From Spirochaetia bacterium (lineage in GTDB: Bacteria > Spirochaetota > Spirochaetia > Treponematales > Breznakiellaceae), in NCBI GenBank assembly GCA_026002305.1, contig BOBI01000013.1, positions 1 through 26,105 on the forward strand: a stretch of 26,105 nucleotides of DNA, read 5' to 3'. Position numbers and translations under genes: made by a program. Below, piece by piece: positions 9,548-18,169 of the stretch (position 1 is the first letter of the stretch; the number at the start of each line of letters is the position of its first letter). The notes below the pieces were generated by a model. That model did no database searches. It was given only the letters and a program-made list of their open reading frames with translations, and was not told the origin of the DNA.

Positions 9548-9573
9548 AAAAAGGCTGCATTTACAGAAATTTT
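9548..9573 (+). repeat. Left copy of the 26-bp direct repeat flanking the RM island
   Basis: It matches 17443-17468 at 25 of 26 positions; the shared 18-base core is TGCATTTACAGAAATTTT. Similarity extends a few bases further left (TTTGG in both, with one extra base here). Both copies have the same orientation, 7.9 kb apart, and enclose the RM/PIN operon. Confidence 0.85.
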
Positions 9574-9735: not shown

Positions 9736-12561
9736 ATGAAGGACAAAATTGCCCAACTTTCGATTGACGTTGACTCAGCCTCTGCGAGTCTTAAAAAACT
9801 TACAGACCGCTTTGAGTCAAATTATGCACAATATATGAGCAATGAGTACGACGAATCGAATACACGGACTGATTTTATAGACAGGTTTTTCGAGTTGTTG
9901 GGTTGGGATGTACGGAACGAACAGGGTTTTTCAGAAATTTACCGTGATGTAGTCCGGGAAGATAAAGTCGTAATTAACGGACAAACAAAAGCACCGGATT
10001 ATAGCTTTCGTGTTGGCGGAATAGTAAAGTTTTATGTCGAGGCAAAAAAGCCTTCTGTAAATATAAAGGAAAATACAGAACCGGCATATCAAGTTAGACG
10101 TTACGCATGGACAAAAAAATTACCGTTATCAATTCTTACCGATTTTGAAGAATTCGCGATATACGATACCCGTATAAAACCAAATTCAAATGATGCCGCA
10201 TCTGCGGCGCGCATTTTTTATTGCACATTCCGTGAATACGAAAAGCACTTTGATTTTATTTACAATACATTTTCAAAAAACGCAATTCTTAAAGGGAGCT
10301 TTGATAAGTATATTGACGAGAATAAAAACAAAAAAGGTACAGCCGAAGTAGACAGTGAACTATTAAATCTTGTAGAAGAATGGCGTATGGATCTGGCACG
10401 CAATATCGCCTTGCGTAATAATAATATTTCAATTTACAACTTGAATACTATTGTTCAAAAAATTACCAGCCGCATAATATTTTTGCGTATTACGGAGGAT
10501 AAGGGAATTGAAGATGCGGATTCTCTGCTCACTGCATCAAAGTGTCCAAACATTTATGAACATTTGAATCATCTTTTTGTTAAAGCTAATGTAAAATACA
10601 ATTCAGGATTATTTAAAACAGAAAAATGGATCGAAGATGTTATAATTGACGATAAGATTTTACAAAACATTATCGAATGTTTATATTATCCAAAAAGCCC
10701 TTACGAATTTTCTGTTTTGCCAATCGAAATTCTTGGAAACATTTACGAAAAGTTTTTAGGAAAGACAATTTACTTTAGAGGTGTAAAAGGCGGACATACC
10801 GCCATCATCGAAGAAAAACCCGAAGTGAAAAAAGCGGGCGGTGTTTTTTATACACCACAGTATATAGTGGATTTTATTGTGCAAAATACAATCGGTATTA
10901 TGATCAAGGATAAAACGCCCGACGAAATCGCCGCTTTGCGTTTTGTAGATCCTGCTTGTGGTTCGGGATCATTTTTAGTTGGCGTCTACCAGTATCTTTT
11001 AAACTATCATCTTGATTATTACAGCAGCGAAAAGAATTTAAAAAGTTCTCTAAAAAAAGAAAAGATATACGAAGCAACACACGGGGCTTATAAATTGACA
11101 ATAAGCGAGAAACAAAAAATTTTACAAAACAATATTTACGGTGTTGATATTGATAATCAGGCAGTTGAAGTTACAAAACTTTCATTGTATTTAAAGCTGT
11201 TAGAAAACGAAGGCAATGAAGCAAAAGAACAATTATATAAATTTACAGACATTACCTTACTGCCGTCTTTGGAAAATAATATAAAATGCGGAAATTCGCT
11301 TATCGGTACCGATTTTTACGCACAGGGTGAACTTAGCTTGAGTGAGGAAGAACAATTTAAAGTTAATTGCTTTGATTGGGAAAAAGAGTTTGCAGCGATT
11401 TTCAAGAATGACGGCTTTGATGCTGTGATTGGGAATCCGCCGTATGGGGCAGAGCTTCTAGATAGTGAACGGGAATATTTAGATAGCAAATTTAAAATTG
11501 GTAACACAGATACTGCCGCACTATTTTTATTAAAAGCTAGAAACTTATTAAATGAAAATGGAAAGACAGGTTTTATAATTCCAAAGGCTTTTACTTATGC
11601 ATCTAATTGGCAGAAGACAAGAAATATCATTCTTCCTGATATAGAAGTTGTGGCTGATTGTGGAAAGGTTTGGCAGGAAGTAAAACTTGAAATGAGTATA
11701 TGTATTAACCAAAAAAACAATAAAAAATCTACATTTGTTTACTATAAAAGGGAAGATAAAAAACTTACCAAATTCGGCTCAAAAAAAAGAGCGCTTTGCA
11801 AAGAATTTGATTTAATTTTAAACGGTGTTGACGATAAAGAAACAGAAATTGGGTTAAAAATAAAACGAGCTAACAAAACACTAAATGATTTTATAGAAAA
11901 TAAGCGTGGTGCTATGTTGCAAAAAAATGTTTCTAAAAAAGGAAATATTTTTGTTTTGGCAGGAAAACAAGTTGGAAGATATTTTTTGGAAACAAAAATA
12001 GTAAAAGGAAAAATTGATTCTAAATTAGTTTTAGATGAAAAAGCATTGTTAGCAAATAATTCTGTATTAGTTCAGAATATTGTTGCACATATTGAAAAAC
12101 CATATCCGCATATTTTGATAAGTGCTTCTTTAAATAATTTAGAAAACAGAAAATCATTTGTAATTTTAGACACCGTAAATCAATTAACTATAAAAAATGA
12201 TTTCTCACCAACTTTTATTTTAGGTATAATAAACTCACATCTAGTTTCTTGGTACGCATACCGTTTTATTTTTGCCAATGCCATTAGAACAATGCATTTT
12301 GACAGTGTAACAACAATGAAGATTCCTTTTCCCGAAATATACCTTTCCAAACCTGCCGACAAAACAGAGCACGACAAACTTGTTACGCTTGTGGACAAGA
12401 TGCTTGACTTAAAGCGCAGAGAGCACGATGAACCTAATCCACAGGCGAAAACGGTGTTGCAACGGCAAATTGACGCTGTGGATTCGCAGATTGATACGGT
12501 GGTGTATAAGCTGTACAATTTGACGGACGATGAGGTTAAAGTAGTGGAGGGAGAACAATGA
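9736..12561 (+). CDS. Single-chain restriction-modification enzyme RM1 (Type IIG-like, Eco57I/TaqI-type)
   Basis: This 941-residue protein joins a nuclease, a DNA N6-adenine methylase and a target-recognition region in one chain. The N-terminal domain (about 20-200) resembles HsdR_N, with Glu53, PD at 87-88 and the E-x-K of VEAKK (Glu102, Lys104), the PD-(D/E)XK active site. A helical linker follows to about 330, then SAM-binding motif I DPACGSGSF (405-413), VDIDNQAVEVTKLSLYL, and catalytic NPPY (567-570). The C-terminal third varies in sequence and is the likely TaqI-like specificity domain, ending in a helical segment rich in charged residues. It is expected to methylate one DNA sequence and cut unmodified DNA. 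It opens the operon, and its stop overlaps the PIN gene start by 4 bases. Its nuclease region is nearly identical in DNA to that of RM2. Confidence 0.9.
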   Translation: MKDKIAQLSIDVDSASASLKKLTDRFESNYAQYMSNEYDESNTRTDFIDRFFELLGWDVRNEQGFSEIYRDVVREDKVVINGQTKAPDYSFRVGGIVKFYVEAKKPSVNIKENTEPAYQVRRYAWTKKLPLSILTDFEEFAIYDTRIKPNSNDAASAARIFYCTFREYEKHFDFIYNTFSKNAILKGSFDKYIDENKNKKGTAEVDSELLNLVEEWRMDLARNIALRNNNISIYNLNTIVQKITSRIIFLRITEDKGIEDADSLLTASKCPNIYEHLNHLFVKANVKYNSGLFKTEKWIEDVIIDDKILQNIIECLYYPKSPYEFSVLPIEILGNIYEKFLGKTIYFRGVKGGHTAIIEEKPEVKKAGGVFYTPQYIVDFIVQNTIGIMIKDKTPDEIAALRFVDPACGSGSFLVGVYQYLLNYHLDYYSSEKNLKSSLKKEKIYEATHGAYKLTISEKQKILQNNIYGVDIDNQAVEVTKLSLYLKLLENEGNEAKEQLYKFTDITLLPSLENNIKCGNSLIGTDFYAQGELSLSEEEQFKVNCFDWEKEFAAIFKNDGFDAVIGNPPYGAELLDSEREYLDSKFKIGNTDTAALFLLKARNLLNENGKTGFIIPKAFTYASNWQKTRNIILPDIEVVADCGKVWQEVKLEMSICINQKNNKKSTFVYYKREDKKLTKFGSKKRALCKEFDLILNGVDDKETEIGLKIKRANKTLNDFIENKRGAMLQKNVSKKGNIFVLAGKQVGRYFLETKIVKGKIDSKLVLDEKALLANNSVLVQNIVAHIEKPYPHILISASLNNLENRKSFVILDTVNQLTIKNDFSPTFILGIINSHLVSWYAYRFIFANAIRTMHFDSVTTMKIPFPEIYLSKPADKTEHDKLVTLVDKMLDLKRREHDEPNPQAKTVLQRQIDAVDSQIDTVVYKLYNLTDDEVKVVEGEQ
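9847..10334 (+). repeat. Nuclease-domain segment shared with RM2 (copy 1)
   Basis: This 488-bp segment aligns without gaps to 13336-13823 with about 20 mismatches by eye (about 96% identity), many of them silent. Similarity falls sharply at the right edge, where the proteins remain only moderately alike. This points to recent gene conversion or domain exchange. Confidence 0.85.
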
Positions 12562-13031
12562 AAAAACTTAAATTATATCTTGATACTTCCATTATTAGTT
12601 ATCTTGATCAACAAGATTCCCCTGAAAAAATGACAGAGACGCATCGGTTTTGGGATCAACTAAAAGCCGGAGTGTATTCTGTTGTTCTATCTGATGTCGA
12701 TATTATCGAAATTGATGGTTGCGAAGAAGAAAAAAGAGATAAATTAAAAAATTATTTAAAAGATATAGAATACGAATTGATAAAATCAGAACCAAAAGCT
12801 GTTGATATTGCAAGCCGTATTGTTGACTTGGGTATTCTAAAACAAAAAAGTTTTGATGATTGCCGCCATATAGCAAATGCCATCGTAAGCGGCTGCGATG
12901 CAATAGTTTCGTGGAATTTTAAACATATTGTAAACCATAAAACGATGATAGGTATAAAAGCCATTACTGCGCTTGAAGGGTATAGCGACCTCTTAATATA
13001 TTCCCCGCCAAGCCTAATAGAAGGAGAATAA
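12558..13031 (+). CDS. PIN-domain ribonuclease, VapC-like toxin candidate
   Basis: This 157-residue PIN-fold protein is a predicted metal-dependent RNase; VapC relatives cut tRNA or rRNA. The acidic residues expected in the active site are visible: Asp9 in LYLDTS, Glu51 in DVDIIEID, Asp100/Asp101 in FDDCRHIANAI and Asp114 in GCDAIVSWN. Its ATG overlaps the RM1 stop (ATGA, 4 bases), so it is translationally coupled to the restriction enzyme. A 66-residue antitoxin-like gene follows after one base. The toxin-before-antitoxin order is less common than antitoxin first. The name VapC is not certain, since this subfamily is typed only by its partner. Confidence 0.85.
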   Translation: MKKLKLYLDTSIISYLDQQDSPEKMTETHRFWDQLKAGVYSVVLSDVDIIEIDGCEEEKRDKLKNYLKDIEYELIKSEPKAVDIASRIVDLGILKQKSFDDCRHIANAIVSGCDAIVSWNFKHIVNHKTMIGIKAITALEGYSDLLIYSPPSLIEGE

Positions 13032-13032
13032 A

Positions 13033-13233
13033 ATGATACACTATGACATTCCAAAGCCAGACTTAAGTCCTAATTTTACTCTCGATGACATTCATAAAAT
13101 ACGAGAGTGGAATTACGAACGTCTTAAAGATGCAACTGTAGAGGAGCAATTAGCCGATATTCACAAACGAGCAGAGCCGCTAATCTTAGAATTGAACGCT
13201 CAAAAAAATGTTGGAAACAATCATACAAAATAA
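13033..13233 (+). CDS. Small antitoxin-like partner of the PIN protein
   Basis: This 66-residue charged protein begins MIHYDIPKPDLSPNFTLDDI, a start I associate with small proteins encoded beside PIN toxins (a Pro-rich opening, then an IREWNYE helix). It is mostly helical in appearance, with no clear ribbon-helix-helix or AbrB motif. Ribosome site GAAGGAG lies just upstream, inside the end of the PIN gene, and the gap between the genes is one base. Its likely role is to bind and restrain the PIN nuclease; this rests on context and general resemblance. Confidence 0.75.
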   Translation: MIHYDIPKPDLSPNFTLDDIHKIREWNYERLKDATVEEQLADIHKRAEPLILELNAQKNVGNNHTK

Positions 13234-13257
13234 CAATAGGAATATGCCAATAACAAC

Positions 13258-16200
13258 ATGAATGAAAAAAATAATAAACTTAAAACCTTAACAGACCGCT
13301 TTGAGTCAAATTTGCCATCATATATTAGCAATTCCTACGACGAATCGAATACACGGACTGATTTTATAGACAGGTTTTTAGAGTTGTTGGGTTGGGATGT
13401 ACGAAACGAACAGGGTTTTTCAGAAATTTACCGTGATGTAGTTCGGGAAGATAAAGTCGTAATTAACGGACAAACAAAAGCACCGGATTATAGCTTTCGT
13501 GTTGGCGGAATAGTAAAGTTTTATGTCGAGGCAAAAAAGCCTTCTGTCAACATAAAGGAAAATACCGAACCGGCATATCAAGTTAGGCGTTACGCGTGGA
13601 CAAAGAAATTACCTTTATCAATTCTTACCGATTTTGAGGAATTTGCGATATACGATACCCGCATAAAACCAAATTCAACTGATGCCGCATCTGTGGCGCG
13701 CATTTTTTATTGCACATTCCATGAGTATGAAAAGCAATTTGATTTTATTTACAATACATTTTCAAAAAACGCAATCCTTAAAGGGAGCTTTGATAAGTAT
13801 ATTGACGAGAATAAAAACAAAAAGGGAACGAGTGAAGTAGATAGCGACTTGCTTTCGACAATTGAATCATGGAGAGAACAACTCTCAAAAAACATTGCAA
13901 TACGAAACAACGAAATTTCAATTTACAAACTAAATACCGCCGTTCAAAAAATTATTGACAGAGTAATATTTTTGCGCATAGCCGAAGACAAATCTATTGA
14001 AGATGAGGCAGTTTTAAAAACGGTAATTCAGACTCAAAACATTTACGAGAAATTAAATCTTCTTTTTGAAAAAGCTAATATAAAATATAATTCTGGACTT
14101 TTTATAAGTGATGAGTGGCTTCTCCATTTAAACATTGACGATAAAATATTAAAAGATATTATCGAAAATCTTTATTACCCAAAATGTCCCTATGAATTTT
14201 CTGTCCTTCCAATCGAAATACTCGGCAACATTTACGAAAAGTTTCTAGGAAAAGAAATAAGCTTTAGAGGAGTAAAAGGCGGACATACTGCAATAATTGA
14301 AGATAAACCGGAGGTTAAAAAAGCCGGAGGCGTATTTTATACGCCGCAATATATTGTGGACTTTATTGTTAGAGAAACTATCGGAAAAGCCATAAACGGT
14401 AGAGCTCCGATAGATGTCGTAAATTTAAAAATTTGCGACCCTTCATGCGGTAGCGGGTCTTTTCTTGTTGGCTCATACACTTATCTATTAAATTACCATC
14501 TAAATTATTATTGCCAAGAAAAAAATATTAAAAATGCTTTAAAGAACGAAAAAATATACGAAACAACAAATAAAAACCAAGGCACTAATTACAAACTTAC
14601 AATAACGGAAAAACAAAAAATCCTTTTAAACAATATCTATGGAGTTGATATAGACAGTCAAGCTGTTGAAGTAACAAAATTAAGTTTGTATTTGAAACTT
14701 TTAGAGAATGAAACAAAAGAAGCGGAAGGCCAACTGTTTAAGCACAGCGATTTAGCCTTATTACCTTCGCTTGAAAATAATATCAAATGCGGAAACAGTT
14801 TAATAAACACAGATTTTTACGACAAAAAGGATACTTTTAATTTTGATGTAGAACAGCAGCGAAAAATAAATGCTTTTGACTGGAAAGAAGAGTTTTTAGA
14901 TATATTTAAAAATGGCGGTTTTGATATTGTTATTGGTAATCCGCCGTATGTTAAAGAATATACCTCCCGTGAAATTTTTGAAGATATTAAAAAATCACAT
15001 TTAGCTAAATATTATGAAGGCAAAATGGATTTATGGTATTTCTTTGTCTGCCATGGAATTGATATTTTAAAGCCAACCGGAAAGTTAGGGTTTATCGCAC
15101 CAAGTAATTGGATAACTAATTCGGGGGCTTCGATTTTACGAAATAAACTCATGACAGAATCCAAAATAGAAAATTATGTTGATTTTGGCGATTTTATGGT
15201 TTTTGCAGAAGCAAGCATACAAACCTGCGTCTTTATTCTAAATAAACAACTTGCACCGGAAGGTTATACAATAACGTTTAACAAAGTGCTTTCAAAAAAA
15301 ATAAGTGCAACTGAGCTTATTGCATATTTAACAAATAATCAAACCACAAAAAACGTAAGCTCTACAAGTGTTTTAATAAATCCTGCAATTATGAAAGATG
15401 GATTGATAAACTTTGTAGGGAATGATAAAGAAAAAATACTGCAAAAAATTGCAGGTCTTGCAAATTATACTTTTAATGAAAAAGAAATTGCACAGGGTAT
15501 TGTGTGTCCGCAAGATTCATTACTTACAAAGCATTTAGATGTTCTAAAAAATAATGACTTGAAAAAAGGCGATGGTGTTTTTGTAATTAACACTATCGAA
15601 AAAACAAATTTAAAATTAGCACAAAAAGAAGATAGTATTGTAAAACCTTATTATACTACAGAGCAATTAAAAACCTATTTTGGTGATACAAATAATTCTC
15701 ATTGGGTTATTTATTCAGATTTATCCGTTAGGCAAAACATTTCAAAATACCCAAACATAAAACAACATCTTGATAAATACAAAAAAATTATAACTTCGGA
15801 TTTTGCACCGTATGGATTACACAGGGCGCGTGAGCAAAAGTTTTTTGAAGGCGAAAAAATAATATCTCTGCGAAAAACGCCATACCCTCGTTTTACATAT
15901 AATGATTTTCCTTGTTATGTTTCACAATCATACTATGTATTAAAACCACAGAATATAAATTTAAAATATTTATTAGGAATTCTAAACTCACACCTTATGT
16001 ATTTTTGGCTTTATAACAGAGGTAAAAAACAAGGCGAGCAATTACAGGTTGATAAAGAACCATTATTAGACATTCCCGTGTTTATAGGAACAGACGCTCA
16101 GCAACAAGAGCTAATTGATCTTGTTGACAAAATGCTTATGCTGCTCAAACAAGAACATGAGACAGCAGATACCGATTCAAAAAACATAATACAGCGCACT

Positions 16201-16290
16201 ATAAAAGCTACGCAAAAAATGATTGATAAAGCGGTGTATGGTTTGTATAGATTGGATATTGACGAAGTTGATATATTGGAGAGGGCATGA
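13258..16290 (+). CDS. Single-chain restriction-modification enzyme RM2 (Type IIG-like, paralogue of RM1)
   Basis: This 1010-residue paralogue of RM1 has the same plan: PD-(D/E)XK nuclease with PD at 76-77 and Glu91-Ala-Lys93, a helical linker, SAM motif I DPSCGSGSF (394-402), VDIDSQAVEVTKLSLYL, NPPY at 561-564, then a C-terminal specificity region. From about residue 27 to 190 the protein is almost identical to RM1. The methylase core is clearly related but diverged. The region after NPPY is hardly alike, so a different recognition sequence is expected. The start ATG at 13258 has no strong Shine-Dalgarno (AGGA about 15 bases upstream). The stop at 16288-16290 directly touches the TTG start of the large PIN-like gene. 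No frameshift or missing catalytic residue was seen. Confidence 0.9.
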   Translation: MNEKNNKLKTLTDRFESNLPSYISNSYDESNTRTDFIDRFLELLGWDVRNEQGFSEIYRDVVREDKVVINGQTKAPDYSFRVGGIVKFYVEAKKPSVNIKENTEPAYQVRRYAWTKKLPLSILTDFEEFAIYDTRIKPNSTDAASVARIFYCTFHEYEKQFDFIYNTFSKNAILKGSFDKYIDENKNKKGTSEVDSDLLSTIESWREQLSKNIAIRNNEISIYKLNTAVQKIIDRVIFLRIAEDKSIEDEAVLKTVIQTQNIYEKLNLLFEKANIKYNSGLFISDEWLLHLNIDDKILKDIIENLYYPKCPYEFSVLPIEILGNIYEKFLGKEISFRGVKGGHTAIIEDKPEVKKAGGVFYTPQYIVDFIVRETIGKAINGRAPIDVVNLKICDPSCGSGSFLVGSYTYLLNYHLNYYCQEKNIKNALKNEKIYETTNKNQGTNYKLTITEKQKILLNNIYGVDIDSQAVEVTKLSLYLKLLENETKEAEGQLFKHSDLALLPSLENNIKCGNSLINTDFYDKKDTFNFDVEQQRKINAFDWKEEFLDIFKNGGFDIVIGNPPYVKEYTSREIFEDIKKSHLAKYYEGKMDLWYFFVCHGIDILKPTGKLGFIAPSNWITNSGASILRNKLMTESKIENYVDFGDFMVFAEASIQTCVFILNKQLAPEGYTITFNKVLSKKISATELIAYLTNNQTTKNVSSTSVLINPAIMKDGLINFVGNDKEKILQKIAGLANYTFNEKEIAQGIVCPQDSLLTKHLDVLKNNDLKKGDGVFVINTIEKTNLKLAQKEDSIVKPYYTTEQLKTYFGDTNNSHWVIYSDLSVRQNISKYPNIKQHLDKYKKIITSDFAPYGLHRAREQKFFEGEKIISLRKTPYPRFTYNDFPCYVSQSYYVLKPQNINLKYLLGILNSHLMYFWLYNRGKKQGEQLQVDKEPLLDIPVFIGTDAQQQELIDLVDKMLMLLKQEHETADTDSKNIIQRTIKATQKMIDKAVYGLYRLDIDEVDILERA
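13336..13823 (+). repeat. Nuclease-domain segment shared with RM1 (copy 2)
   Basis: Counterpart of 9847-10334; see that entry for the alignment. A direct repeat of this length and identity, 3.5 kb apart, is itself a substrate for recombination that could fuse RM1 and RM2 and delete the toxin-antitoxin pair. Confidence 0.85.
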
Positions 16291-17223
16291 TTGAATTTAG
16301 TTAAGATATATTTGGACACCAATATTTTTACTCGTTTACGAAATTCTGAGATTAGATTAGGTATTGATCCAAAAAACAATGTAGCCTTCTTTTTCTCACA
16401 TGCACATATACTAGATTTAAAAAACGATTCGTCAAATGAAAAGTTTTTAGATTTAGAATTTATAGCATCAGTGGTATACAGAAATTATTTACACAAATAT
16501 TTCAATAAGCCAATACTGCTTTATAATTTAAGTCCCAAAGAAGCATTTGATGAAGAAATGCAGGACTATGACATATCATCATTTGACTGGTCTTTATTAA
16601 ACAGTATTTCACAGATAACTGAGAATATGGCTAATTTAAATGAAAACCTACCAAAAATTGATACAAAGAATATTGATTTATCTGTGCTATCTCCAGCTTT
16701 ACAATTATACATTCAAAATATATTTAATATTACTAAAGATGATTTTGATGTATCAAAATTTATGAAAAATGCATTAGAATTTCAATATAGTATTGAGAAT
16801 AATAAAGATGAATATAAAAAATTAAAACAACTTATAAGTAAGAATAGTAAATTACTTTTTGGAAAAGATGGAATTTCAATCAATAAAAATGATATTGATA
16901 AAATATTTTTGGAATCTCAATTTCACATGAATTTTTTGGATTATATAGACAAAAATATCACAATTAACATATATGAAAACAATGACAGGTTTTATCATAG
17001 ATTTTTAACGGGATATAGCATATTAAATAGCTTTGGCTTCGATGAAGAGTCAAATAAAAAAGCAAAATTTAGAAATACTTTTGACGATGGGTTACATGCT
17101 TTTTATGCAAGTACGTGTGACTTATTAATTAGTGCCGATAAAAAGATGATAGAAAGAACAAGATTTATGTATAAATTATTTGATATACCTACAAAAACAA
17201 TGTATATACAACTGACAAAATGA
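16291..17223 (+). CDS. Large PIN-like nuclease, partner of RM2
   Basis: This 310-residue protein begins KIYLDTNIFTRL with Asp9, the first PIN acidic residue. It ends with FDDGLHAFYASTCDLLISADKKM (Asp265, Asp266, Asp283), the usual second half of a PIN active site. The acidic residues are separated by a helical insert of about 200 residues, which makes it roughly twice the size of VapC. The start is a TTG directly after the RM2 stop (TGATTG), with GGAGAGGG 5 bases before it. An ATG at 16287 leads only to a 5-codon frame. The gene is the most AT-rich in the window. No antitoxin gene follows. The activity is inferred from the fold signature, and the exact PIN subfamily was not recognised. Confidence 0.75.
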   Translation: MNLVKIYLDTNIFTRLRNSEIRLGIDPKNNVAFFFSHAHILDLKNDSSNEKFLDLEFIASVVYRNYLHKYFNKPILLYNLSPKEAFDEEMQDYDISSFDWSLLNSISQITENMANLNENLPKIDTKNIDLSVLSPALQLYIQNIFNITKDDFDVSKFMKNALEFQYSIENNKDEYKKLKQLISKNSKLLFGKDGISINKNDIDKIFLESQFHMNFLDYIDKNITINIYENNDRFYHRFLTGYSILNSFGFDEESNKKAKFRNTFDDGLHAFYASTCDLLISADKKMIERTRFMYKLFDIPTKTMYIQLTK

Positions 17224-17249
17224 GAATCTGTAGAAAAAGAGAGCAAACT

Positions 17250-17387
17250 ATGACCGACACCATCAAAAACGAGCTGGAAATTATCACCAACGCCATAACT
17301 GCCAATACAACGGAGTGGCTTATGGAAATTGAAACCGTAACAGAATGGTTTTACTTAGCTAATCGGTGCCTGACACATTTTGGATAG
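17250..17387 (+). pseudogene. 45-codon ORF, possible gene remnant at the island edge
   Basis: ATG at 17250 follows a GAGAG ribosome-like site. The frame MTDTIKNELEIITNAITANT... stops at TAG (17385-17387). The first 20 residues resemble the N-terminus of small stand-alone nucleotidyltransferase-domain proteins (MNT type), but the catalytic GS-x10-DxD core is absent. It would therefore be a 5' fragment. GGTGCCTGACAC (17365-17376) lies in its last third; similar strings occur at ends of small mobile repeats. The resemblance is weak and this may be noncoding. Confidence 0.3.
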
Positions 17388-17442: not shown

Positions 17443-17468
17443 AAAAAGGGTGCATTTACAGAAATTTT
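17443..17468 (+). repeat. Right copy of the 26-bp direct repeat flanking the RM island
   Basis: It differs from 9548-9573 at one position (G for C at base 8). The copy includes TTTACA (17455-17460), the probable -35 of the Crp/Fnr gene that follows, so it may be the original chromosomal copy and the left one the duplicate. Confidence 0.85.
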
Positions 17469-17506: not shown

Positions 17507-18169
17507 TTGGAAAAATACCTGCCGGTGCTAAAACGGTGCCCGCTTTTTCAAACAATAGCCGAACAGGATATTTTAGCACTTTTGAATTGTCTTACCGTTA
17601 AAAAGAAAAAATATGAAAAGGATGCATTGATTTTTTGCCCGGGCGATGATATAAGCTCGGTTGGAATTGTTTTAACAGGAGCTATTCACATAGAGAGCGA
17701 TGATTTTTGGGGCAACCGTACAATTATTTCCCGTGTTGAATCCGGCGAAATGTTTGGCGAGTCTTTTTCTTTTGCAGAGGACAGGGCATTATCTGTTAGC
17801 ATTACCACAGCGGAGCCTACCAAAATCATTTTAATTGACTATAAAAAAATAATTAAGACATGTTCATCGGCTTGTAATTTTCACACAAGGCTTATACAAA
17901 ATATACTAAGAAACCTTGCGGAACAAAATATTGCCCTTGTGTCAAAAATGGAATTTATCACACAACGTACAACACGGGAAAAATTATTATCTTATCTTTC
18001 AACTTGTGCGCGTAACGAAAAGAAGCCTTCTTTTGAAATCCCGTTTAACCGTCAGCAATTAGCGGATTTTCTTTCCGTCGAAAGAAGCGCAATGTCGGCG
18101 GAACTTGGACGTATGCGCGACGAAGGCCTTATCGTGTTTAATAAAAATCAATTCAAACTTAGCAAATAA
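17507..18169 (+). CDS. Crp/Fnr-family transcription regulator
   Basis: This 220-residue regulator has an N-terminal cyclic-nucleotide-binding beta-roll (about 12-120, with VGIVLTGAIHIE and ESGEMFGE), a dimer helix and a C-terminal winged helix-turn-helix (about 178-210, FNRQQLADFLSVERSAMSAELGRM). The Arg-Ser/Thr pair that grips cAMP phosphate in CRP is not evident, and there is no FNR-type Cys cluster. It most resembles Crp/Fnr proteins of anaerobes whose ligand is unknown. The start is a TTG with AGGAG 7 bases upstream; no in-frame ATG is better placed. It stands alone, just outside the right repeat of the RM island, and converges on the wecG-like gene. Confidence 0.9.
   Translation: MEKYLPVLKRCPLFQTIAEQDILALLNCLTVKKKKYEKDALIFCPGDDISSVGIVLTGAIHIESDDFWGNRTIISRVESGEMFGESFSFAEDRALSVSITTAEPTKIILIDYKKIIKTCSSACNFHTRLIQNILRNLAEQNIALVSKMEFITQRTTREKLLSYLSTCARNEKKPSFEIPFNRQQLADFLSVERSAMSAELGRMRDEGLIVFNKNQFKLSK

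What the first reader, a model, noticed from the sequence alone, without database searches (positions are those of the whole stretch)
9736..17223. Duplicated pairing of a single-chain RM enzyme with a PIN-family nuclease
Each of two Type IIG-like RM genes is followed with no spacing by a PIN nuclease gene: ATGA overlap at 12558, TGATTG junction at 16288. The first PIN is VapC-sized with an antitoxin-like partner; the second is a 310-residue PIN-like protein with none. The coupling suggests each PIN protein works with its RM enzyme, for example as an RNase back-up when restriction fails or modification is lost. The motifs and junctions are seen directly; the joint function is inference.
Basis: partly seen in the sequence, partly recalled or inferred. 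Interest (0 to 1): 0.8.

Follow-up and report, generated by a model that had tools for sequence, protein, structure and literature searches.

The report
Swappable toxin slots behind restriction genes
Two copies of a one-protein DNA-cutting defence enzyme are each followed by an RNA-cutting-type gene, but in relatives that spot usually holds a different toxin-like or defence gene, and leftover copies of the enzyme gene's tail suggest that such genes come and go there.

Summary
In detail: RM1 (9736-12561) overlaps a 157-aa PIN gene by ATGA, and RM2 (13258-16290) runs straight into a 310-aa gene (TTG at 16291). Both RM proteins are Type IIG-like. PIN1 belongs to a large VapC-like family with a conserved 66-aa partner. 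PIN2 has a PIN-like acidic pattern, and its predicted structure aligns best with VapC/PIN chains.

The specific pairing is not supported. Of 35 RM pairs at least 60% identical (next genes of >=140 aa, plus two HicA), none share a next gene by BLASTP. The slot holds HicA, HicB, ApeA, KAP NTPase, RhuM, DUF4160 and others. PIN1 recurs in two other RM arrays at other distances; only 1 of 29 other PIN1 loci checked has an RM tail nearby.

A stronger pattern emerged. DNA from the last 150 nt of the RM gene recurs downstream in 12 of 70 RM genes, against 1 of 1214 control windows and 0 of 58 upstream regions, in several phyla. In spirochaete loci 6 of 11 such copies abut the next ORF, though chance positions do so about as often. 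I read the RM 3' end as a recombination hub where toxin/defence genes are swapped. That mechanism, and any joint function, are inferred.

The parts
9736..12561 (+). RM1, single-chain Type IIG-like restriction-modification enzyme (941 aa)
   Evidence: Pfam Eco57I 3e-33, N6_Mtase, HSDR_N; PADLOC IIG 603 bits
12412..12561 (+). RM1 3' tail (last 150 nt) ending in a Shine-Dalgarno-like purine run (AAAGTAGTGGAGGGAGAACAATGA)
   Evidence: duplex energy -9.8 kcal/mol; its protein end matches full and orphan RM tails in other loci
12558..13031 (+). PIN1, VapC-like PIN gene overlapping RM1 by ATGA
   Evidence: 19 of 22 aligned members match PF01850; invariant D9, E51, D101, D114
13033..13233 (+). 66-aa antitoxin-like partner of PIN1
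   Evidence: the same gene follows PIN1 in L131 and L050; DNA of 13030-13260 also matches L160-L163, L165, L178, L011 and L148
13258..16290 (+). RM2, second Type IIG-like enzyme (1010 aa)
   Evidence: Pfam Eco57I 8e-45, TaqI_C 1e-8; PADLOC 598 bits
9833..10330 (+). block 93-99% identical between RM1 and RM2, 46-84% further on: recombination or conversion tract
   Evidence: sliding identity; 300-nt repeat at 94%
16291..17223 (+). PIN2, 310-aa likely PIN-fold protein with a long helical insertion
   Evidence: 9 other relatives found in about 5.8 billion proteins by two capped word-based searches
17245..17308 (+). fragment that reads (by eye) like the start of an MNT nucleotidyltransferase gene, shared with other RM arrays
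   Evidence: 78-84% DNA match to L050, L011, L123; 45-codon frame 17250-17387
9556..9573 (+). left copy of an 18-nt exact direct repeat flanking the whole island
   Evidence: two copies in the 2.2 Mb assembly at up to 1 mismatch; 0.02 expected in the window
17451..17468 (+). right copy of the same direct repeat (43 nt at 81% around it)

Best explanation
The two PIN genes are interchangeable passengers in a variable slot at the 3' end of a single-chain RM gene. Shown: close RM relatives carry unrelated next genes (HicA, ApeA, KAP NTPase, PIN and others), and stretches of the RM gene's 3' end (mostly 37-158 nt) recur downstream, in several loci between such genes. Inferred: recombination within the conserved RM tail inserts or displaces gene cassettes and leaves tail fragments as scars, with the newest cassette next to the full RM gene. 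The window, RM1-PIN1-partner-RM2-PIN2, would be two such units in tandem, before a second RM body is worn down to a tail. Also inferred: the last RM codons form a Shine-Dalgarno-like run, so a gene placed at the stop codon is translated with the RM message. PIN1 plus its partner is a free-standing VapC-like toxin-antitoxin module; PIN2 is a PIN RNase candidate without a recognised partner. Their likely benefit is defence or addiction that rides with the RM gene, not a dedicated RM-PIN mechanism.
For: None of 35 RM pairs >=60% identical over >=450 aa share a next gene (next genes >=140 aa or HicA; RM identity up to 80%; 0 of 52 when ORFs down to 60 aa, some surely spurious, are let in). Pfam families in the slot are mostly single occurrences. 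Of 20 slot genes that I chose for PADLOC, 8 match PDC families (phage defence candidates; expansion recalled) at E<=1e-10. RM tail DNA is re-found downstream at E<1e-8 in 12 of 70 RM genes, against 1 of 1214 control windows and 0 of 58 upstream regions, some on contigs of 184-585 kb (L049, L090, L113, L115). PIN1-partner lies directly at RM1 here, behind a C39-like gene in L050, and behind two genes, an orphan tail and a 219-aa gene in L131. The end of PIN2 relative P0002 fits an RM tail read in another frame (0 of 150 shuffles reach its score). In Phycisphaerae L119 an orphan tail overlaps a PIN gene by GTGA. Tail SD energy -6.9 against -2.2 inside the same genes, stronger than the mean of synonymous resampling in 64 of 86.
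Against: Abutment is barely above background (34 of 80 against 166 of 542). Tail copies that keep their 3' end abut an ORF start in 7 of 16 cases, against 1244 of 3600 random positions: not distinguishable by this test. In L070, L072, L078, L090, L114 and L115 no copy abuts an ORF, and in L113 the copy lacks its 3' part; L072 also involves dispersed repeats. In the window no tail copy lies downstream of either RM gene, and the RM1 and RM2 tails do not match each other at DNA level (best E 0.36). Some slot families do recur (HicA twice, DUF4160 twice, PDC-M30A three times). P0003's extension is weak (5 of 150). No recombinase was systematically sought. Much of the SD strength follows from the amino acids. 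Most genomes are draft MAGs, the own one 64.5% complete.
Confidence: 0.57

Rival explanations
1. Dedicated RM-PIN back-up: each PIN is held in check by its RM enzyme and cleaves RNA when restriction is blocked or modification lost, as PrrC does with PrrI.
For: Two RM-PIN junctions in one island; PIN2 has no recognised antitoxin, so some other restraint is needed if it is toxic; PrrC-PrrI precedent and HEPN/PIN back-up effectors in R-M and BREX loci (passages of PMC3710099, and PMC12839542).
Against: The pairing is not conserved; PIN1 has its own conserved partner; the two other close RM genes of the own genome lack a PIN next door.
Confidence: 0.12
2. Tail copies are debris of RM gene duplication or of target-recognition-domain exchange; the genes between them arrived independently, as in any defence island.
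For: RM1/RM2 tandem copies with a recombination tract; in 7 of the 12 loci no tail copy has an ORF start directly behind it; orphan frames of 71 to 265 aa carry parts of the RM C-terminus.
Against: The copies concentrate on the last 150 nt: 12 of 70 against 1 of 1214 for other RM segments, which whole-gene decay would not give; in L011, L049, L123, L131 and L119 copies run into a gene start.
Confidence: 0.33
3. Site-specific insertion: a recombinase acting in trans uses the RM 3' end as an attachment site, as with elements that integrate at gene 3' ends.
For: Most copies in L011, L049, L114, L119, L123 and L131 end at or within about 25 nt of the stop codon; inserted stretches are small.
Against: Copy start, end and length vary (26-211 nt) and identity is 77-96%, not perfect; a Y1-transposase-like frame read by eye at one tail (L090) is the only lead.
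Confidence: 0.15

Closest known systems
HEPN-containing R-M operons and PrrC-PrrI
   Same: An RNase or toxin gene is linked to an R-M locus as a proposed second line; ApeA embedded in R-M operons is listed there (passages of PMC3710099)
   Different: Here the R-M is single-chain Type IIG-like, the next gene differs between close RM relatives, and RM 3'-end copies lie downstream
BREX auxiliary/back-up effectors (PMC12839542)
   Same: Many effector families, PIN included, recruited next to a methyltransferase-based system (passages)
   Different: The slot here is the RM gene's own 3' end; none of the 10 window proteins scanned is a BREX core protein, but BREX genes were not searched for
Pneumococcal tvr locus (PMC6265443)
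   Same: A Doc-Phd-like gene pair inside a recombining R-M locus with repeats (passages)
   Different: Type I; one TA-like pair plus tyrosine recombinase TvrR; shuffles specificity segments
Insertion with long target duplication (Nobusato 2000, seen only as a reference in PMC3874152; content recalled)
   Same: A long stretch duplicated on insertion around R-M genes
   Different: There (recalled) R-M is the inserted unit; here the RM 3' end is the duplicated stretch
Orphan toxin modules of CDI/Rhs polymorphic toxins (recalled)
   Same: Displaced modules with leftover conserved coding segments lie downstream of a complete gene
   Different: There the toxin is the C-terminus of a secreted carrier; here it is a separate gene after the stop codon

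Membership tests
Type IIG restriction-modification enzyme | N-terminal nuclease domain of R-M type | tested here: met
   HSDR_N above cut-off in both; PDYSF...EAK stretch visible in both sequences
Type IIG restriction-modification enzyme | N6-adenine methyltransferase (NPPY, DPxCGSGSFL) in the same chain | tested here: met
   Eco57I and N6_Mtase above cut-off; motifs in alignment A2
Type IIG restriction-modification enzyme | C-terminal target recognition domain | tested here: inconclusive
   TaqI_C above cut-off in RM2 (1e-8), below it in RM1 (0.0015)
Type IIG restriction-modification enzyme | cleavage and methylation activity | not testable with these tools
   -
VapC-type toxin-antitoxin module (PIN1) | PIN domain toxin | tested here: met
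   19 of 22 aligned members match PF01850; the window protein itself is below cut-off
VapC-type toxin-antitoxin module (PIN1) | adjacent small antitoxin conserved with the toxin | tested here: met
   partner follows PIN1 in L131 and L050; further DNA matches. It follows the toxin gene, whereas classic vapB precedes vapC (recalled), and it matches no antitoxin family
VapC-type toxin-antitoxin module (PIN1) | partner neutralises the toxin | not testable with these tools
   -
PIN-domain protein (PIN2) | conserved acidic active-site pattern | tested here: met
   D9, D42, D46, D266, D283 invariant in 10 aligned sequences; their match to the PIN pattern is by eye
PIN-domain protein (PIN2) | PIN fold | tested here: met
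VapC-type toxin-antitoxin module (PIN2) | adjacent small antitoxin gene | tested here: inconclusive
   no further same-strand ORF of >=60 aa between RM2 and the Crp-like gene at 17507; only a 45-codon frame at 17250-17387 that reads like a gene remnant
PrrC-PrrI-type RM-guarded nuclease | HEPN nuclease with ABC NTPase domain | tested here: not met
   no HEPN or NTPase match; PIN-type genes instead
Integron-type cassette array | integrase and attC sites | not tested
   no systematic search for recombinase genes or attC was made
BREX | PglX with PglZ/BrxC core genes | tested here: inconclusive
   RM proteins hit BREX PglX models far below cut-off; no PglZ/BrxC search was made

The most novel reading that the evidence does not exclude
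The 3' end of single-chain RM genes is a widespread cassette platform: a conserved coding segment that serves at once as recombination homology and as ribosome-binding leader, so that toxin and defence genes can be captured, expressed from the RM message, stacked and displaced across many phyla, as an integron-like archive without attC sites.
Probability: 0.3. Interest if true: 0.8.

Novelty: new variant of a known kind. Interest (0 to 1): 0.57.

Why it matters
Defence genes cluster and turn over quickly, but how a new gene lands in an expressed position is mostly unknown. A conserved gene end that supplies both homology and a translation start would be a concrete, testable answer, and RM tail sequences could be used as bait to find new toxins and defence genes. 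It also warns against reading adjacency to an RM gene as functional pairing.

Tried and rejected
Dedicated RM-PIN pairing: rejected as a general rule. Abutment as evidence of coupling: near background. Orphan tails always abutting a gene start: not distinguishable from random positions by my crude test. The 0 of 52 count includes doubtful short ORFs (for instance L010 and L108), so I recounted with next genes of >=140 aa plus two HicA: 0 of 35. BLASTP at E<1e-3 misses two family matches among next genes (L101/L113 DUF4160; L068/L131 PDC-M30A); those RM pairs are 55% and 45% identical, outside the >=60% set. First AF2 model of PIN2 with 4 sequences was poor (pLDDT 52.9) and its Foldseek search unhelpful; a 10-sequence alignment gave a better model. 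hhalign of PIN2 against PIN1 profiles aligned 45 columns only (probability 41%, E 0.00028). Sequence search of solved structures named no PIN protein for either. Empty site: in 12 other Crp-like loci with up to about 1.5 kb of flank none of the ten window neighbour proteins tried, other than the Crp-like one, was found; TIM loci were fetched but not examined further, so I cannot tell whether the island was inserted between the 18-nt repeats. PIN2 by profile in 195 family genomes: own genome only, so its context elsewhere is known only through the protein ends of P0002 and P0003. Literature: 10 searches; no listed title or abstract start described RM 3'-end copies between toxin genes. Four papers were looked into by passages (one also by its abstract). 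Most subscription papers, and preprints, are not held.
Full report
What is there. The window is from a draft genome (G000, 2.2 Mb in 352 contigs, 64.5% complete). The closest named relatives of PIN1 and PIN2 come from Spirochaetia. RM1 and RM2 are Type IIG-like: HSDR_N nuclease end, N6-methyltransferase centre, TaqI_C-type end above cut-off in RM2, PADLOC REase_MTase_IIG at about 600 bits each. They are 69% identical over 652 alignment columns, with a block of about 500 nt at 93-99% DNA identity that ends abruptly, a sign of recombination between the copies; their C-terminal recognition regions differ.

Is it a pairing? The own genome holds two further close RM genes. One (contig C14, L011) is followed by hicA with an ATGA overlap, then a HicB-like gene and other small genes, several toxin-antitoxin-like by eye; the other (C116, L010) ends towards a convergent transporter-like gene. 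A more distant RM-like gene on C25 was not examined. Next genes were called mechanically, and some short ones are surely spurious. With ORFs of >=60 aa starting within -45..+60 of the RM stop there are 44 next genes, of which two pairs are alike by BLASTP at E<1e-3 (HicA with HicA, and two proteins with membrane character by eye), and 52 RM pairs >=60% identical, none sharing it. With next genes of >=140 aa plus the two HicA there are 31 genes and 35 RM pairs (23 RM genes), again none sharing it; pairs share members and are not independent. Pfam (30 proteins; a set of 44 from RM tails, full and orphan) names HicA, HicB, MNT-type nucleotidyltransferase, C39 peptidase, KAP NTPase, DUF488, UPF0175, ApeA with HEPN, DUF4238, DUF2971, RhuM, DUF4160 and FGE-sulfatase; many others match nothing. 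Of 20 slot genes scanned one by one with PADLOC (chosen by me, not at random), 8 match PDC families at E<=1e-10, three of them PDC-M30A (TcmP-like by eye). PIN matched 1 of 44, evidently the L119 gene; the two window PINs fall below that threshold. In the other direction, of 30 PIN1 loci (the window and 29 others, kept from 72 genomes with a match), only the window and one other hold an RM tail within their flanks. The pairing is therefore not specific, and abutment itself is close to background (34 of 80 against 166 of 542).

The tails. In L011 the RM 3' end occurs three times, each running into a new ORF: hicA at the full gene, then a 211-aa and a 198-aa gene. I tested this across loci (an earlier version is). 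The last 150 nt of each RM gene was searched in up to 6 kb downstream for 70 distinct RM genes with at least 1.5 kb of downstream DNA. At E<1e-8, 12 of 70 tails are re-found, against 1 of 1214 other 150-nt windows of the same genes (the 35 control windows of the two window genes left out, because RM2 itself lies downstream of RM1) and 0 of 58 upstream regions. At E<1e-3 the counts are 17 of 70, 11 of 1214 and 3 of 58. The 12 loci are L011, L049, L070, L072, L078, L090, L113, L114, L115, L119, L123 and L131, from spirochaetes, Bacteroidetes, Sumerlaeota, Chloroflexi, Phycisphaerae and unassigned bacteria (titles; L011, L123 and L131 are from the window's genome and family). In L011, L049, L123, L131 and L119 copies run into gene starts through ATGA, GTGA or near overlaps; L119's is a PIN gene. 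Against this, by a mechanical test 7 of 16 copies that keep their 3' end abut an ORF start (6 of 11 in spirochaete loci), and random positions in the same DNA do so in 1244 of 3600 cases; L072 involves dispersed repeats; and the window shows no tail copy.

PIN1 moves, PIN2 may carry a tail. PIN1 with its partner lies directly at RM1 here, behind a C39-like gene in L050, and behind a TcmP-like gene, a second gene, an orphan tail and a 219-aa gene in L131. P0002, 70% identical to PIN2, has a 37-residue extension whose shifted frame fits the RM tail (score 136; best of 150 shuffles 108); P0003 is weaker (5 of 150 shuffles reach it). So PIN2 too seems to sit beside an RM tail elsewhere, though I could not read that DNA. 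A 64-nt fragment behind PIN2 (17245-17308), like the start of a nucleotidyltransferase gene by eye, recurs in L050, L011 and L123.

How it may work. The last seven RM codons before the stop (endings such as VVEGE or IVEGK) pair with the 16S tail: mean -6.9 kcal/mol over 86 RM genes, against -2.2 for 860 inner 21-mers. Synonymous resampling gives -5.3, and 64 of 86 genes exceed their own resampled mean; genes with a close next ORF average -8.1, others -6.1. Much of the effect comes from the amino acids, and codon choice adds some. I infer that a gene joined to the tail is translated from the RM message, and that recombination within the tail stacks or replaces cassettes. The window would be a young case with two whole RM genes. 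The 18-nt exact repeat that flanks the island (9556-9573 and 17451-17468) occurs nowhere else in the assembly at up to one mismatch and may mark a past insertion, but I found no empty site.

Known or new. R-M loci with second-line RNases are known (HEPN analysis PMC3710099, passages; BREX effectors PMC12839542, passages and abstract), as is a toxin-antitoxin-like pair within a recombining Type I locus (PMC6265443, passages). None of the titles and abstract starts listed by ten literature searches described RM 3'-end copies between toxin genes. I rate it a new variant of a known kind.

Noticed in passing
window 9556-9573 and 17451-17468: 18-nt exact direct repeat, two copies in the assembly, flanking the RM-PIN island (43 nt at 81%)
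   Followed up: partly
L011 (own contig C14) 5013-8624 and L148 24-3154: dense array of HicA/HicB-like, MNT/HEPN-like, orphan antitoxin and other small genes (names mostly by eye), with RM tail copies in L011
   Followed up: partly
L090 11835-12626: frame read by eye as IS200/Y1-transposase-like, carrying RM tail pieces at its end
   Followed up: no
L123 10148-10351: small ORF beginning with a piece of the RM tail (MLALKKREQAETE) joined to an unrelated sequence
   Followed up: no
L078 6937-8831: gene read by eye as SIR2-like, on the opposite strand, lying between the RM gene and an orphan RM tail
   Followed up: no
window 17250-17387: 45-codon frame starting like MNT nucleotidyltransferases (by eye), a fragment also seen in L050, L011 and L123
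   Followed up: partly
own contig C25 (L012): a further, more distant RM-like gene (30-38% identity in pieces) whose neighbours were not examined
   Followed up: no
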